From a virus, in the IMG/VR virus record IMGVR_UViG_3300028377_000012, positions 1 to 60,450 of that record: DNA of 60,450 bases; one strand, 5' to 3'. The notes under the pieces were generated by a model. The model was not told where the DNA came from and searched no databases. It was given only the letters and a program-made list of their open reading frames with translations. Below, piece by piece: positions 49,936-59,887 of this stretch (the first letter of the stretch is position 1; the number at the start of each line of letters is the position of its first letter). A program made the translations under genes and the position numbers.

Positions 49936-51525
49936 TTATTTAATAATTTCTATTTGTTTTGGAAAAATAGGATTATTGGTTGCTAAATACGCTGGCAACC
50001 CACTCTCTTTACTATTATGCAATTCATCATTTACTGTTTCGGCTATTCCGTCTTCTGGATCGACAATTAGATTGGATATTGGAATGGTAATTTTTAATAT
50101 TGTTGGCGAGTCCTTTTCATCTGCAAACCATTGTGCATTTTCAATAAAATTTGTTAAATAAAACAAATTAGGGTTGCCCATTTGCGACCCACGTTGTCCA
50201 GAATTTGGTTTCCATCCAAATTTGATGAGATTCACCGCTGTTCCAAAACTAGTTCCGTGATATAATGTAACTAGTTTTTGATCTACTTCTTCAAATATAA
50301 TAGTAATTCCCGCATCATACGCATTTCCACCAACAGTTTTTTTACCAACAGGATTACCAATTCTATATTTCTTGGCATAGAATGCAGCTTCTGGACTACC
50401 TTGTTTAACTTTAATAATCTTAGATCCGTTCGTTTTAGCGGAATCTATTTTGTTATCAAGTTTGTTTGAATTTTTTCTTTGATATTCTGGTAATATATTT
50501 AAGGATTTGCGATCACCTTGTCCGAGCATACCTGCACTGTTCTGTTGCTGACGGTGTTTAGCCTTATGCTGCATGTCTCCACGCCCTTGAGTAGTGCCTA
50601 GCATGTCTTTATATACATTCTCTTCGTAAACCCCCTTAAAGCGGGTCATAGTGGCTCCTTTAGTTAGGTTGGTTTTCAGTAATTGATTAAGTTGCTTATA
50701 TTCCTTACCACTTAATTCCTCATCCCTACCTAAAATTTTCTTAATTTTCTTTGCAAGGTCAATATAGTGATAACGTTCAATAAGTTTAAACACAACATTA
50801 CCTGGAAGTCTTGTTTTAATTCCATATTTTTTAAGTTCCGATGGTGTCATATCCTCTGCAAATGCATCATTTCTAAAAACACTAAGTTCGCCATATACAT
50901 CGATCAACGATAGTAAAGATTTTTCAAGTTTATTTAATTTCCTTTGTATCTTTTTTGATAACCCATCAAGTTGGTTTTGTGGAATATCCTTTAAAATTTC
51001 AATATCTACCATATCTCTGCGAATTTCTTCAGTAAAATCGGAAAATTGTTGGACGTATTTTTCAAAATCCTTTGAATAATCATCTATGTTAATATTCTTT
51101 GAGGGTGTTCTCTTGATCCACTCATCGTCTTTTAAATTATATATACCTTCTGCGTTTTTTATATTGTAACCTTTGTTAGTAATATAATATTGTAATGGGT
51201 GTGGGATACCCTTTAGGTATTTATCATCGATTTCTAACCATGTTGAATATAATATATCGCGAAGATCTTTCTCAGATTTGGTGGACTTAACTCTAATAAA
51301 AATATCAATATCAGAATCTTTCGTATATTGCTTTGATAAGATGCTACCTTTGATAAAATAGTCAACAATTGGAACAACTGATCTTACCTTATCAATATCT
51401 TGCTCAATTTTATTTTTTAAATATTCTTTAATAGTGGGTGCAGTATCTTCTGGATTATCAAATACATATGGGGAATATGTTTTAAGGGTTTGGTCAACTA
51501 CAGATTCAAGTAAAGATAATTTCAT
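49936..51525 (-). CDS. Nucleotidyltransferase plus ADP-ribosyltransferase-like fusion, candidate packaged effector
   Basis: A 529-residue late protein. Near residue 50 it has FIKGSILSKQYTKDSDIDIF, the G-S...D-x-D pattern of polymerase-beta-type nucleotidyltransferases. Near residue 435 it has KLVTLYHGTSFGTAVNLIKF then GNPNLFYLTNFIENAQWFAD, the His and Tyr segments of ADP-ribosyltransferase-like folds. The middle is helical, with a Gln-rich linker. The N-terminus MKLSLLESVVD contains L-L-E/S, a prohead-protease-like site. T4 packs the ART Alt in its head and injects it; this could be a functional counterpart, though no homology to Alt itself is evident. The start is set by a late octamer 5 nt upstream; the longer frame crosses the promoter. 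Confidence 0.65.
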   Translation of the reverse strand: MKLSLLESVVDQTLKTYSPYVFDNPEDTAPTIKEYLKNKIEQDIDKVRSVVPIVDYFIKGSILSKQYTKDSDIDIFIRVKSTKSEKDLRDILYSTWLEIDDKYLKGIPHPLQYYITNKGYNIKNAEGIYNLKDDEWIKRTPSKNINIDDYSKDFEKYVQQFSDFTEEIRRDMVDIEILKDIPQNQLDGLSKKIQRKLNKLEKSLLSLIDVYGELSVFRNDAFAEDMTPSELKKYGIKTRLPGNVVFKLIERYHYIDLAKKIKKILGRDEELSGKEYKQLNQLLKTNLTKGATMTRFKGVYEENVYKDMLGTTQGRGDMQHKAKHRQQQNSAGMLGQGDRKSLNILPEYQRKNSNKLDNKIDSAKTNGSKIIKVKQGSPEAAFYAKKYRIGNPVGKKTVGGNAYDAGITIIFEEVDQKLVTLYHGTSFGTAVNLIKFGWKPNSGQRGSQMGNPNLFYLTNFIENAQWFADEKDSPTILKITIPISNLIVDPEDGIAETVNDELHNSKESGLPAYLATNNPIFPKQIEIIK

Positions 51526-51530
51526 ATAAT

Positions 51531-51538
51531 TATTTATT
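51531..51538 (-). promoter_or_regulatory. Late promoter octamer
   Basis: AATAAATA on the minus strand, then ATTAT and the ATG at 51525. Confidence 0.75.
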
Positions 51539-51559
51539 GTATTGGGGATATTGTGCAAC

Positions 51560-51591
51560 AAAAAACGCATCTCGTTTCCAAGATGCGTTTT
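51560..51591 (-). terminator. Rho-independent terminator
   Basis: On the minus strand an 11-bp perfect stem AAAACGCATCT/AGATGCGTTTT with an 8-nt loop runs into TTTTTTG, 21 nt past the stop of the 51613 gene and just before the next late promoter. Confidence 0.9.
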
Positions 51592-52189: not shown

Positions 52190-52197
52190 TATTTATG
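52190..52197 (-). promoter_or_regulatory. Late promoter octamer overlapping the terminase start codon
   Basis: CATAAATA on the minus strand (52197-52190) drives the 51613 gene. It shares bases with the plus-strand ATG at 52195. Confidence 0.6.
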
Positions 52198-54027
52198 TTT
52201 TATAGTCCATTTTTTTCAAAATGTGGAAATATCTTTAAATATTTAAAAAGATATATGCAATCAGGTAGAAAAATAGTCCGTAAGGATGATGAATTAATTA
52301 AGCGTCTTAATAAGAGATACGCAGACAATGTAGTGCCGTATATGGGTAATAGTAATTTACCAACAGTCGGTTCTACATATCAATATGATGCCGATAGATT
52401 ACAAGTGTGGGGACGCTGTAGGGATAACATATTATATTTTGCACAACATTTTTTTTACATTATAACTGACGGTAAAAGAGAAACTATCAATCTTCACCCA
52501 TTCCAAAGAAATGCATTAAGGATGTTTAGAGAAAACAAAAAAAATATAATGTGCACGTCTCGTCAGATCGGGAAAGCTCTTGCTATAGAAACCCCTATAC
52601 CTACACCAAACGGGTGGACAACTATGGGTGAACTAAAAGATGGGGATGTTATATATGACAATAATGGGAGTAAAACTAATGTAATAAAGGCATGGGATGT
52701 TATGCATGATAGACCATGTTATAAAATTACTTTTTGTAACGGTGAGGAAATAGTTGCAGATGAAGAACATTTGTGGATGACTGAAACTTTTAATGACCGT
52801 CGAGGTAGAAAAAATAAATCATCAAATAAAAAGAAAACAACTAAAGATATTTTAGATACATTGTATTATAAAAATGGGAATGTGTATCAACCGAACCATG
52901 CTATCAAGTTGGCAGAACCTATTGTTGGTAATGGTAATGATGATTTAGAAATACACCCATATATATTGGGGTTATGGTTGGGTGATGGATATGCACATGA
53001 ACCAAAACTATGTGTAGGGTATCAAGATATCGAAATTCAAAAAAGTATATTAGGTGAGTTGGGGTATATTGAAGATATTAATTACACTACACATGATATG
53101 GCAGATAAGGGACATATGATCATTAGTTTTATTGGTAATATACCCAATAAAGATATCACCATGAGAAAGGCCATTAGAGATTTAAATATTTTTAAAAATA
53201 AACATATACCCCAAAAATACCTTAGATCATCTATAGATGATAGAAAGTTATTACTTCAGGGTATAATGGATACAGACGGTTCTATAACTAATACTATGAA
53301 TACGTTTTATAATACAAATAAGGCCATTATTAATGACGTTAGGGAATTATTAATGACGTTAGGTATAAAATATAATGTAAAAGATATAGTAAATGAAAAC
53401 TTTCATAAAGGTAAACAGAGGAAGGATATATATAGGTTACATTTTAAATCTAAATTTGATGTTTTTAAAATACTTAGAAAAATTAAAAAACAAAAAATTA
53501 CTAATTTGAAGAAAGGCAATTATGTATATATCAGAAATATAGAACCCGTTAATAGTGTCCCTGTAAGATGTATAACTGTAGACTCTACAGATGCTGTATT
53601 TATGTGTGGAAAAAGTGGGATTGTTACATCAAACACCACCCTAATGACAATTTATGCCCTATGGCTTGTAACTTTCTGTGAATATCAGAGTGTAATCATT
53701 GTTGCCAATAAAGAAAAAACCGCTAAAGAAATTCTTGAGCGTATTAAGACTGCGTATGAAGGTTTACCAAATTGGTTAAAGGCTGAAGTTGCAAGAGGTG
53801 GGTGGAATAAAGAAGAAATTTTATTTCAAAGTAAAAGTAAAATTCAAATTAGTGCAACAAGTGCTGATAGTATTCGTGGTAAAACATGTAATTGTGTTGA
53901 CGGATCAACTGTAGTTACTATACGCGATAAACATACAGGTGATATATTTGATATCAATATGGAGAATTTATATAATATATTAGAGTCTGATGGTGAAGAC
54001 ATGAATATGTTTTTAGTTAGTGAATAA
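52195..54027 (+). CDS. 17: Terminase large subunit, N-terminal part, with class-3 intein and split-intein N-fragment
   Basis: A 610-codon frame. Residues 1-127 are terminase (FQRNALRMFRENKKNIMCTS ending in RQIGK). Residues 128-480 are an intein, and residues 481-566 resume terminase (TTLMTIYALWL, then SATSADSIRGKTCN). Residues 567-610 are the N-fragment of a second intein that ends at a stop. After splicing, CTSRQIGK joins TTLMT to restore Walker A, as in T4 gp17 SRQLGKTT. The packaging ATPase itself is completed by the downstream frame. The start at 52195 overlaps an opposing late promoter; ATG 52255 is an alternative. Confidence 0.92.
   Translation: MFYSPFFSKCGNIFKYLKRYMQSGRKIVRKDDELIKRLNKRYADNVVPYMGNSNLPTVGSTYQYDADRLQVWGRCRDNILYFAQHFFYIITDGKRETINLHPFQRNALRMFRENKKNIMCTSRQIGKALAIETPIPTPNGWTTMGELKDGDVIYDNNGSKTNVIKAWDVMHDRPCYKITFCNGEEIVADEEHLWMTETFNDRRGRKNKSSNKKKTTKDILDTLYYKNGNVYQPNHAIKLAEPIVGNGNDDLEIHPYILGLWLGDGYAHEPKLCVGYQDIEIQKSILGELGYIEDINYTTHDMADKGHMIISFIGNIPNKDITMRKAIRDLNIFKNKHIPQKYLRSSIDDRKLLLQGIMDTDGSITNTMNTFYNTNKAIINDVRELLMTLGIKYNVKDIVNENFHKGKQRKDIYRLHFKSKFDVFKILRKIKKQKITNLKKGNYVYIRNIEPVNSVPVRCITVDSTDAVFMCGKSGIVTSNTTLMTIYALWLVTFCEYQSVIIVANKEKTAKEILERIKTAYEGLPNWLKAEVARGGWNKEEILFQSKSKIQISATSADSIRGKTCNCVDGSTVVTIRDKHTGDIFDINMENLYNILESDGEDMNMFLVSE
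52576..53634 (+). other. Class-3-type Ala-1 intein with LAGLIDADG endonuclease in terminase Walker A
   Basis: A 353-residue intein. It starts with Ala (ALAIETPIPTPNGWTTMGEL, block A) and has ADEEHLW (block B, with Trp). It has two endonuclease motifs, YILGLWLGDGY and LLQGIMDTDGSI, and ends RCITVDSTDAVFMCGKSG then IVTSN, followed by Thr. Trp in block B, Cys in block F and Thr at +1 make up the W-C-T set that defines class 3 inteins, which need no residue-1 nucleophile. Ser replaces the usual penultimate His. Confidence 0.9.
53893..54024 (+). other. Split intein, N-fragment (44 aa)
   Basis: Begins with the nucleophile Cys1 (CVDGSTVVTIRDKHTGDI, block A) directly after terminase RGKTCN. It ends at a TAA stop before any block B sequence. 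This is a short, atypical N-fragment, of the kind known from AceL-TerL. Confidence 0.88.
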
Positions 54028-54081
54028 ATACCAATTCTTGAAATAGGTGGCTAAAAGGTAGGCCGAAAGCTAAATAATAAT
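54025..54081 (+). other. Gap between split terminase halves
   Basis: After the TAA at 54025 come 54 nt in the same frame, with a second TAA at 54052, before the ATG at 54082. It holds a G-rich segment AGGTGGCTAAAAGGTAGGCC and the near-late-promoter GCTAAATA (54069-54076) placed 5 nt before the ATG. No endonuclease gene lies between the halves. Confidence 0.8.
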
Positions 54082-54420
54082 ATGGCAGATGTTGTAGATT
54101 ACTCTATTTTTAAAAATAATAGGTTTGAGGTCTTAACCCAAGATGGGTTTAAAGACTTTAAAGGGGTTATTAAGGGAAAAAATTATAATAAGTTGATAAT
54201 TCATACTTATAAAAATTCCTTAATATGCACACCTAAACATAAGTTAATGGTGGACGATAACAAATATACATTTGCCAAAGATTTAAAAATCGGTGATACG
54301 ATTTATAATGGCATAGTTATTATAGACATAATTAAGGTCAATAATACAAAACCCGTATACGAATTCCTAGAAATCAAAGATAATCATACATATTATGCTA
54401 ACGGTTTTTTATCTAAGCAA
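54082..54420 (+). other. Split intein, C-fragment (113 aa)
   Basis: Contains FEVLTQDGFKDFKGVIKG, block B SLICTPKHKLMV (T-x-x-H), a KIGDTIYNG turn, block F VYEFLEIKDNHTYYANG, and ends GFLSKQ before Cys+1. The usual terminal His-Asn is replaced by Lys-Gln. Confidence 0.88.
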
Positions 54421-55647
54421 TGTTTACTTATTGATGAACAGGCATTTATAGAACCTAATATTATGAAGGAATTTTGGTCTGCTGTTTACCCAACTATTTC
54501 TAGTTCTGATAATGCAAAGGTGCTGATCGCATCAACTCCAAATGGGGTTGGAAATTTATTTCATAAATTATGGGAAGTGTCCAAAGAAAAAGGGTCTGGT
54601 TGGGGCAGATTAGAGGTTCCTTGGTCTAATGTGCCTGGAAAAACCAAAGAGTGGGCAGATCAGGAGCGGATGACACTTGGCGATGAACAATTCCAACAAG
54701 AATATGAATGTAAATTTCTTGAATCGGGTGGTTCAAATATTTCACAAGAGTTATATAATGAGTTACAAAAATCTTGTAGAAAACCAAGAATAGAGCATGA
54801 CGATGGAGCATATAAGATTTTTGAACAGCCTAATATTAAAGATCGTATGTATTGTGCGGGTGTTGATATTGGAGAAGGCGTTGGAAAATGTGCCTCAACG
54901 GTTTGTGTATTTGATATAACTGAGCTTACACGCATCGAACAAGTTGCTACATATCATTGCACAGATATTGGGCCATATGAGTTTGCAAGGCGTGTTAATG
55001 AAGTAATGACCCATTGGGGCAAACCGCCACTTGCAGTTGAGCGTAATAATACTGGTGGGGGTATTGTTATTAATACTCTCGACAAGGAATATAATTATCC
55101 CAACCTTGTGAACTTTGCAACAAAGCAAGGTAATCGCGATTATTCTCACTTAAAGGGCGTTACATCATCTACAAATACAAAATATCATGGTGTTGAGAAT
55201 ATGTTTTACCTTTTAAAAGACCATCGTAGAGTTGTTTTACACGATGAAGATTATCTTAAAGAATTGAATACATTTGTGTCCAAAGGTAGCGGTAAATGGG
55301 GTAAAAAAAGTGATTCATATTTTGACGATAGAGTTGACGCAATGATGTGGGCATTAGTATGTGTGCATGAAATGGTAGTGAATCAATATTTCAATGTTGT
55401 AAGGTGGGATGATAATAAAAAACCAATCTTAATTCAAGCCATGTATGAAGCATTTGGTAGAAAAGATATGAACTATCTATTTGGAAGCGAAGAAAATAAT
55501 TATGGTATAGATTCCGTGTTTATGGGTGATGGTGGATGGGGTGACGATTCAGAAATGGATAATATTATCGATGCTGGTTGGTTAACGCCTACGCAAGATG
55601 CTGATAGTGGTTGGGCAAGTTATCACCCAGCCCCTAATTATTCATAA
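54082..55647 (+). CDS. 17: Terminase large subunit, C-terminal part, fused behind split-intein C-fragment
   Basis: A 521-codon frame. Residues 1-113 are the intein C-fragment. From residue 114 terminase resumes with CLLIDEQAFIEPN, which holds Walker B and the catalytic Glu. Then ASTPNGVGNLF (coupling motif) and the RNase-H-type nuclease domain follow: AGVDIGEGVG, AVERNNTGGG, and SYFDDRVDAMMWAL with the late Asp residues. With the N-part (127 + 86 residues) and this C-extein (408 residues), the spliced enzyme is 621 residues, close to T4 gp17 (610). Without trans-splicing neither half has a full ATPase site. Confidence 0.92.
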   Translation: MADVVDYSIFKNNRFEVLTQDGFKDFKGVIKGKNYNKLIIHTYKNSLICTPKHKLMVDDNKYTFAKDLKIGDTIYNGIVIIDIIKVNNTKPVYEFLEIKDNHTYYANGFLSKQCLLIDEQAFIEPNIMKEFWSAVYPTISSSDNAKVLIASTPNGVGNLFHKLWEVSKEKGSGWGRLEVPWSNVPGKTKEWADQERMTLGDEQFQQEYECKFLESGGSNISQELYNELQKSCRKPRIEHDDGAYKIFEQPNIKDRMYCAGVDIGEGVGKCASTVCVFDITELTRIEQVATYHCTDIGPYEFARRVNEVMTHWGKPPLAVERNNTGGGIVINTLDKEYNYPNLVNFATKQGNRDYSHLKGVTSSTNTKYHGVENMFYLLKDHRRVVLHDEDYLKELNTFVSKGSGKWGKKSDSYFDDRVDAMMWALVCVHEMVVNQYFNVVRWDDNKKPILIQAMYEAFGRKDMNYLFGSEENNYGIDSVFMGDGGWGDDSEMDNIIDAGWLTPTQDADSGWASYHPAPNYS

Positions 55648-59416: not shown

Positions 59417-59887
59417 ATGAATTTATCAAAGAGAAGGCGCATTTTAGACAATAATAGAGATATTCGATCATCTATTATTAAAAAGCGTGTATTAGCGGAT
59501 CGCCAAATGAGAAATGATATTGTAAATGTGAATAAATATATTGGTCAAAAAAGATATAAATTTTCACCATATGTTGAAACTGAATATGTTGAACCAGAAC
59601 CAGAATTTGGTATATGTGATTTAGTTGATACAGACTTCGAGGACGATTGTGAATATTATGGCAATTTGTTCTTAACGGGGCCATTTGCAATTCTTGAAAA
59701 TTTTGAAACTAGAACAAATGACGAAATTGGTGGGGAATTTTTTAATGTGGGTTTATTTAATTATGTTGAGGATTTTGAAACTAGAACAAATGACGAAATT
59801 GGTGGGGAATTTTTTAATGTGGGTTTATTTAATTATGTTGAGGATTTTGAAGATGGGTTATCGCATGGCGAATTAATAAATTTGTGA
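59417..59887 (+). CDS. Virion-type protein with internal tandem repeat, 156 aa
   Basis: The N-terminal basic helical region and KFSPYVETEYVEPEPE resemble the previous gene, so the two look like paralogs that differ in cargo. The C-terminal half contains a perfect 72-bp tandem repeat encoding 24 residues twice (FETRTNDEIGGEFFNVGLF and following). It starts 5 nt after the previous stop. The function is unknown; the repeats may set the length of a surface element. Confidence 0.6.
   Translation: MNLSKRRRILDNNRDIRSSIIKKRVLADRQMRNDIVNVNKYIGQKRYKFSPYVETEYVEPEPEFGICDLVDTDFEDDCEYYGNLFLTGPFAILENFETRTNDEIGGEFFNVGLFNYVEDFETRTNDEIGGEFFNVGLFNYVEDFEDGLSHGELINL
59701..59844. repeat. Perfect 72-bp tandem repeat (two copies)
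   Basis: Units 59701-59772 and 59773-59844 are identical and in frame (24 codons each), followed by the first bases of a third copy. Confidence 0.95.

What the first reader, a model, noticed from the sequence alone, without database searches (positions are those of the whole stretch)
52576..53634. Second intein in the same gene: class-3 type with homing endonuclease in Walker A
Ala-1, Trp in block B (HLW), Cys in block F (RCITVDS) and Thr at +1 form the W-C-T set of class 3 inteins. Two LAGLIDADG motifs indicate an intact homing endonuclease. One terminase gene therefore carries a class 3 contiguous intein and a Cys-1 split intein, 86 extein residues apart, so cis- and trans-splicing must both happen, with the Walker A and Walker B motifs each interrupted.
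Basis: partly seen in the sequence, partly recalled or inferred. Interest (0 to 1): 0.85.

Follow-up and report, generated by a model that had tools for sequence, protein, structure and literature searches.

The report
Class 3 intein in phage terminase
A phage's DNA-packaging motor gene is interrupted by a self-removing protein insert of a known type, and the same gene is also broken in two by a second, different insert; the first insert is ordinary for phages, and the pairing has arisen many times in related phages.

Summary
Window 52576-53634 encodes a 353-aa class 3 intein with an intact-looking two-motif LAGLIDADG endonuclease, inserted between the Walker A Lys and Thr (SRQIGK|TT) of a T4-type terminase large subunit. 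Sequence, phylogeny (100/100 support) and predicted fold (class 3 DnaB intein, Z 22.6, rmsd 1.2 over 125 residues) agree. One correction: the Thr of the W-C-T set is block G:5 (...VTSN, third from the intein end), not the +1 Thr; both are present. The same gene, 86 extein residues on, carries an atypically split class 1 intein (44-aa N part, 113-aa C part) of the known TerL type (Cat, VidaL), so the mature enzyme should need one cis and one trans splicing reaction. Class 3 P-loop inteins are common in phages. The pairing with a split intein is not unique: it appeared in 20 of 84 class 3 TerL loci classified and in 12 separate places on a 99-row TerL tree, with no sign that the two inteins attract each other. 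A 64% identical relative has the split intein and an empty Walker A site. Best read as repeated independent homing of two known kinds of element. Splicing and DNA cleavage are inferred, not shown.

The parts
52195..52575 (+). TerL N-extein, ends in Walker A ...SRQIGK
   Evidence: PHROG terminase large subunit
52576..53634 (+). class 3 intein, 353 aa, cis-splicing with LAGLIDADG endonuclease
52576..52791 (+). splicing blocks A and B: Ala1, His65, Trp67
   Evidence: His65 and Trp67 in 95 of 95 rows
52951..53280 (+). endonuclease core with LAGLIDADG motifs; acids Asp137 (52984-52986) and Asp234 (53275-53277)
   Evidence: both Asp in 95 of 95 rows; Pfam; PI-SceI fold
53509..53634 (+). splicing blocks F and G: branch Cys332 (53569-53571), Thr351 = WCT Thr (53626-53628), Ser352 in place of His, Asn353
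53635..53892 (+). middle extein, 86 aa, starts TT (+1 Thr), ends RGKTCN before Walker B
53893..54024 (+). N half of atypically split class 1 intein, 44 aa, Cys1 (CVDGSTVV), then stop
54025..54081 (+). 57-base stretch between the two genes (stop codon included); no room for an endonuclease gene
54082..54420 (+). C half of the split intein, 113 aa, ends Lys-Gln, +1 Cys
   Evidence: PDB CatC E 5e-5 and VidaL E 1.5e-4
54421..55644 (+). TerL C-extein from Walker B (CLLIDE) to the nuclease domain
   Evidence: Terminase_6C, PHROG

Best explanation
It is a class 3 intein with a LAGLIDADG homing endonuclease, sitting in the P-loop of a T4-type terminase large subunit. Inferred chemistry: Cys332 (block F:4), helped by His65 and Thr351, attacks the Lys-Ala1 bond and makes a branched thioester; the P-loop Thr at +1 takes over the N-extein; Asn353 cyclises and the exteins are joined, restoring GKTT. 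The endonuclease would cut intein-free terL alleles at the P-loop and copy the intein in. Independently, the atypically split class 1 intein just before Walker B would join the products of the two genes in trans. The two inteins were most likely acquired separately, the class 3 one after the split from relatives such as L006 (or lost there). Shown here: homology, catalytic residues, fold prediction, phylogeny, empty and filled sites. Inferred: splicing, cutting, need for both.
For: PDB class 3 DnaB inteins are the best sequence hits (E 1.4e-21, residues 1-70 and 317-352). W67, C332, H65, N353 conserved in 95 of 95 full-length relatives and G:5 Thr in 94 of 95 (one Ser); the 95 rows include 7 repeat fetches. 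No nucleophile at position 1 in 92 of 95 (89 Ala, one each Leu, Gly, Arg; the other 3 Ser). Splicing-domain tree: 21 class 3 rows against 12 class 1 rows, 100/100 support, 100% of 200 bootstrap trees. AlphaFold model pLDDT 89.3: class 3 DnaB intein Z 22.6, rmsd 1.2, 125 of 125 residues; class 1 gp41-1 18.8, Npu DnaE 16.8; PI-SceI over the whole model Z 26.4. Both endonuclease acids in 95 of 95. Empty site: L006 reads SRQIGKTTLMTIY with 69 of 90 bases identical around the site. Filled and empty sites inside TerL clusters at 90% identity or more, e.g. L051/L052 against L144/L165/L172, L166/L171 against L195. Intein identity exceeds extein identity, 72% against 45%, for L046/L041.
Against: No splicing or cleavage was measured. 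The penultimate His (G:6) is Ser here, as in 20 of 95 rows, which may slow Asn cyclisation. The window's own intein has no close relative outside its clones (best 45%, L026), so its donor is unknown. Between the window and L004 the intein shows 2 changes, both nonsynonymous, too few to show purifying selection.
Confidence: 0.93

Rival explanations
1. The intein has lost mobility or splicing and is a decaying relic: it splices poorly, or the endonuclease no longer cuts.
For: Ser in place of the penultimate His; no close intein relative outside the clones; only 2 differences to L004 in the intein, both nonsynonymous.
Against: Every catalytic residue of splicing and cutting is kept; Ser at G:6 is shared by other class 3 inteins, 20 of 95 rows; high-confidence fold; TerL is an essential packaging motor (established knowledge), so an intein that did not splice should not persist.
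Confidence: 0.06
2. Class 1 or class 2 intein that merely has Ala at position 1 and a chance Cys in block F.
For: Ala1 alone also fits class 2; class 1 inteins share the fold.
Against: Complete W-C-T set in register, class 3 clade 100/100, class 3 structures best among splicing domains. Class 2 inteins were not put in the tree.
Confidence: 0.01
3. The pair of inteins is kept as a regulatory double lock on packaging: cis splicing gated by redox at Cys332/Cys48, trans splicing gated by meeting of two chains.
For: Cys48, which forms the redox disulfide with the catalytic Cys in M. smegmatis DnaBi1 (PMC6195587, passages), is Cys here and in at least 90% of 39 class 3 TerL inteins; the pairing recurs at 12 places on the tree.
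Against: No association between the two inteins across independent pairs (median p 1); 11 of 43 class 3 clusters and 10 of 49 others carry a split intein; states flip within near-identical TerLs, as selfish elements do.
Confidence: 0.06

Closest known systems
Mycobacteriophage TerL1-a site and class 3 TerL inteins (PMC5050341, passages read)
   Same: Intein between the P-loop Lys and Thr of terminase; class 3 inteins with working splicing and endonucleases are reported in TerL
   Different: There class 3 is stated for groups TerL1-c, -d, -e; the passages seen do not give the class of TerL1-a. Here the host is a T4-type TerL that is also split.
M. smegmatis DnaBi1 and M. chimaera DnaB1 class 3 inteins (PDB 6bs8, 6rix)
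   Same: W-C-T set, His65, Cys48, Ala1, fold; DnaBi1 also sits in a P-loop
   Different: These splicing domains have no endonuclease in the solved structures (DnaBi1 is a mini-intein); host is DnaB. M. smegmatis DnaB also carries class 1 + class 3 together, but both in cis.
Escherichia phage kvi and Klebsiella phage RaK2 terminase inteins (L019, L020)
   Same: T4-type TerL, class 3 intein at the same P-loop bond
   Different: TerL otherwise contiguous, no split intein
AceL-TerL, GOS-TerL, Cat and VidaL atypically split inteins (PMC11766414, passages; PDB 6dsl, 6vgv)
   Same: Short N part, long C part; AceL, GOS and Cat are TerL inteins; the C half here matches CatC and VidaL
   Different: 44-aa N part; ends in Lys-Gln; shares its gene with a class 3 intein
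AceL NrdHF split class 3 intein (PMC7891396, passages)
   Same: Class 3, phage-like context, split-gene organisation
   Different: There the class 3 intein itself is split; here the class 3 one is contiguous

Membership tests
Class 3 inteins | No nucleophile at intein position 1 | tested here: met
   Ala1
Class 3 inteins | Trp at block B:12 | tested here: met
   Trp67, aligned with the PDB class 3 Trp; 95 of 95
Class 3 inteins | Cys at block F:4 | tested here: met
   Cys332; 95 of 95
Class 3 inteins | Thr at block G:5 | tested here: met
   Thr351, not the +1 Thr; 94 of 95
Class 3 inteins | Groups with class 3 and not class 1 | tested here: met
   100/100; class 2 not included
Class 3 inteins | Branched thioester on block F Cys during splicing | not testable with these tools
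   needs a splicing reporter with the Cys mutated
LAGLIDADG intein endonucleases | Two LAGLIDADG helices each with its acid | tested here: met
   Asp137, Asp234; Pfam PF14528 3.6e-9; PI-SceI Z 26.4
LAGLIDADG intein endonucleases | Cuts the intein-free allele | not testable with these tools
   an empty site is known from L006
Atypically split TerL inteins | Short N part (about 25-45 aa), C part over 100 aa, in two genes | tested here: met
   44 and 113 aa
Atypically split TerL inteins | Sequence kinship to Cat/VidaL | tested here: met
   E 5e-5 and 1.5e-4 for the C half; no significant hit for the short N half
Atypically split TerL inteins | Cys or Ser at 1, Asn or Gln at the end, Cys at +1 | tested here: met
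   Cys1, Gln, Cys+1
Atypically split TerL inteins | Trans-splices when the two halves meet | not testable with these tools
   needs co-expression of the two genes

The most novel reading that the evidence does not exclude
The recurring pair, a class 3 intein in Walker A and a split class 1 intein downstream, works as a two-step lock on the packaging motor: TerL cannot act until a redox-sensitive cis reaction and an encounter-limited trans reaction have both finished, which times packaging to late infection.
Probability: 0.06. Interest if true: 0.75.

Novelty: new member of a known kind. Interest (0 to 1): 0.4.

Why it matters
As a single element it is an ordinary, well-formed class 3 intein. 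What adds value is the survey: one gene can collect inteins of two chemistries, one contiguous and one split, and has done so at 12 separate places on the TerL tree. T4-type TerL is thus a natural test bed for how inteins with different mechanisms share one host protein, and a source of compatible cis and trans pairs for protein engineering. If the double lock were real, it would bear on whether inteins are ever used for regulation.

Tried and rejected
Association between class 3 and split inteins: an apparent excess (split inteins in 20 of 84 class 3 loci, against 4 of 80 in the extein-based scan, one of the 4 a window clone, plus L177 whose frame breaks at the P-loop) did not survive clustering and independent pairs; the scans have different biases, so neither figure is a population rate.

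Solved-structure search with the 44-aa N half gave nothing useful (best E 0.097, Actinohivin).

A cultured phage with class 3 + split in one TerL: none among the phage TerLs with a split or contiguous downstream intein that I fetched and classified (L009, L011, L012, L013, L014, L015, L016); L010 could not be classified and L197 was fetched but not classified. Only 9 of the 37 records were fetched, and none of the E. coli, Salmonella, Aeromonas or Delftia records, so a cultured case is not excluded.

The Fractured genes paper (10.1093/nar/gkp095) is not held. Class 2 inteins were not put in the tree. Where the contigs were sampled was not looked up. Trichodesmium DnaE as a cis + trans precedent is recalled only; one search gave a listing and no paper from it was read for this. 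Papers: passages only were seen of PMC7664689, PMC7891396, PMC5050341, PMC10189870, PMC6195587, PMC11766414; all others only as listings.

Full report
What was claimed and what is there. The ORF 52195-54027 and the translation of the insert confirm this to the base. The flanking protein is a terminase large subunit (PHROG 36964, E 4e-82, and others; Terminase_6C for the second gene), and the other genes are T4-like: tail tube and tail sheath follow it, and portal gp20, gp15 and gp32-like proteins lie elsewhere in the window. The record is a 60,450-base virus contig.

Class. In two papers read in passages (PMC7891396; PMC5050341) class 3 is defined by Trp at B:12, Cys at F:4 and Thr at G:5. In the window these are Trp67, Cys332 and Thr351. 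Across 95 full-length relatives (7 of them repeat fetches of the same contigs) His65, Trp67, Cys332 and Asn353 are in all 95, G:5 is Thr in 94 and Ser in 1, G:6 is His in 75 and Ser in 20 including the window, and the +1 residue is Thr or Ser in all. The closest solved structures by sequence are the class 3 DnaB inteins. A tree of splicing domains separates 21 class 3 from 12 class 1 rows with full support and puts the window with class 3. The predicted model (pLDDT 89.3) matches class 3 DnaB inteins at rmsd 1.2 over 125 residues and PI-SceI over the whole length.

Endonuclease. Both LAGLIDADG motifs and their acids are present and kept in 95 of 95 rows. Whether it cuts is not known. The target would be the P-loop: L006, 64% identical in extein, has the same split intein but an uninterrupted SRQIGKTTLMTIY; joined flanks of the window match it at 69 of 90 bases. 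Within TerL clusters of 90% identity or more, filled and empty P-loops occur side by side, and intein identity can far exceed extein identity (72% against 45%). This is what mobile elements leave behind.

The second intein. The N gene ends with 44 residues starting CVDGSTVV; after 57 bases the second gene starts with 113 residues ending Lys-Gln before Cys+1. The C half matches CatC and VidaL; Cat is an engineered consensus of AceL-TerL and GOS-TerL, natural atypically split TerL inteins (PMC11766414, passages). In L006 a SegE-like GIY-YIG gene lies between the halves (Pfam E 6.5e-10), followed by a further short frame; the window has no room for one. Six of the C halves near Walker B printed end in Gln (window, L006, L042, L046, L075, L111).

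How common is the pair. Of 168 non-repeat loci with enough TerL to classify, 84 have a class 3 intein in the P-loop and 20 of these also a split intein (10 near Walker B, 10 at a second site before ...C(S/E)FLGS), 9 of the 84 being cut off downstream. Three states were set by hand: L062 and L095 as split from a partial C half, and L075 as class 3 from a shortened endonuclease. The window's cluster supplies 3 of the 20. The split site is the same as the window's in L042/L043, L046/L047 and L075; in L037 and L110 it lies some ten residues further on, after Walker B. After clustering at 90%, and with fully seen clusters only, 11 clusters have both, 32 class 3 only, 10 split only, 39 neither. On a 99-row TerL tree the 12 rows with both need 12 changes, at least 11 forced by supported branches; class 3 alone needs 16; the two traits do not go together in independent pairs. 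The tree is a quick one with several long branches, so the counts are approximate, and the sample was chosen by intein and by nearness to the window.

Recent spread. Between the window and L004 the class 3 intein has 2 differences in 1059 bases and the split intein with its spacer 0 in 528, against 21 in 1863 bases of extein. This hints at recent homing or conversion of both inteins, but rests on one pair.

What is known. Class 3 inteins in TerL, and the Lys|Thr P-loop site, are published. A protein with a class 1 and a class 3 intein, both in cis, is known in M. smegmatis DnaB. A contiguous P-loop intein plus a split intein in one TerL also occurs with class 1-like sequences in Campylobacter phage CP21 and Vibrio phage VP-1. 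I found no paper that describes a class 3 intein and a split class 1 intein in one gene in the searches; the library holds only open-licence papers and I read passages of six, so this is weak.

Verdict. The intein is a new member of a known kind. The pairing is most simply a recurrent by-product of a gene that is a favoured target for several inteins. A regulatory double lock is possible but nothing here favours it.

Noticed in passing
L090 4800-9218 (same layout in L092, L093; partial in L088): Two class 3-like inteins three residues apart in one P-loop: LPRQ | endonuclease-free intein ending PTMN | CGK | full class 3 intein ending THN | STT; a third insert, class 1-like with LAGLIDADG-like match, lies further on (VVS | CVTK ... 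GHQ | TPNG). Three inteins in one TerL.
   Followed up: partly
L111 1198-5455: TerL broken into three genes by two split inteins, one before Walker B and one about 96 residues later, with a GIY-YIG-looking gene in the first gap; would need two trans-splicing reactions.
   Followed up: partly
L014 (Campylobacter phage CP21) and L011 (Vibrio phage VP-1): Contiguous class 1-like intein at the P-loop plus a split intein in the same TerL; CP21 appears to carry a third intein next to Walker B. The pieces are annotated as terminase or hypothetical proteins, or not at all.
   Followed up: partly
L019 (phage kvi) and L015 (phage kaaroe), both Krischvirus RB49: TerL exteins at least 90% identical; kvi has only the class 3 P-loop intein, kaaroe only a split intein in Walker B: a ready pair for a homing cross in a laboratory strain.
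   Followed up: partly
54415-54420: Split intein ends Lys-Gln instead of His-Asn; Gln is shared by six C halves near Walker B, the Lys is not.
   Followed up: no
L098 3-2725: Reading frame of TerL breaks between the class 3 intein and the middle extein: relic or sequencing error.
   Followed up: no
59417-59887: ORF with a direct repeat of about 24 residues (EDFETRTNDEIGGEFFNVGLFNYV-like) near its end.
   Followed up: no
49936-51570 (-): 544-aa ORF two genes from terL with a nucleotidyltransferase domain near its N end (PF01909, E 1.7e-4); the C-terminal part is unassigned.
   Followed up: no
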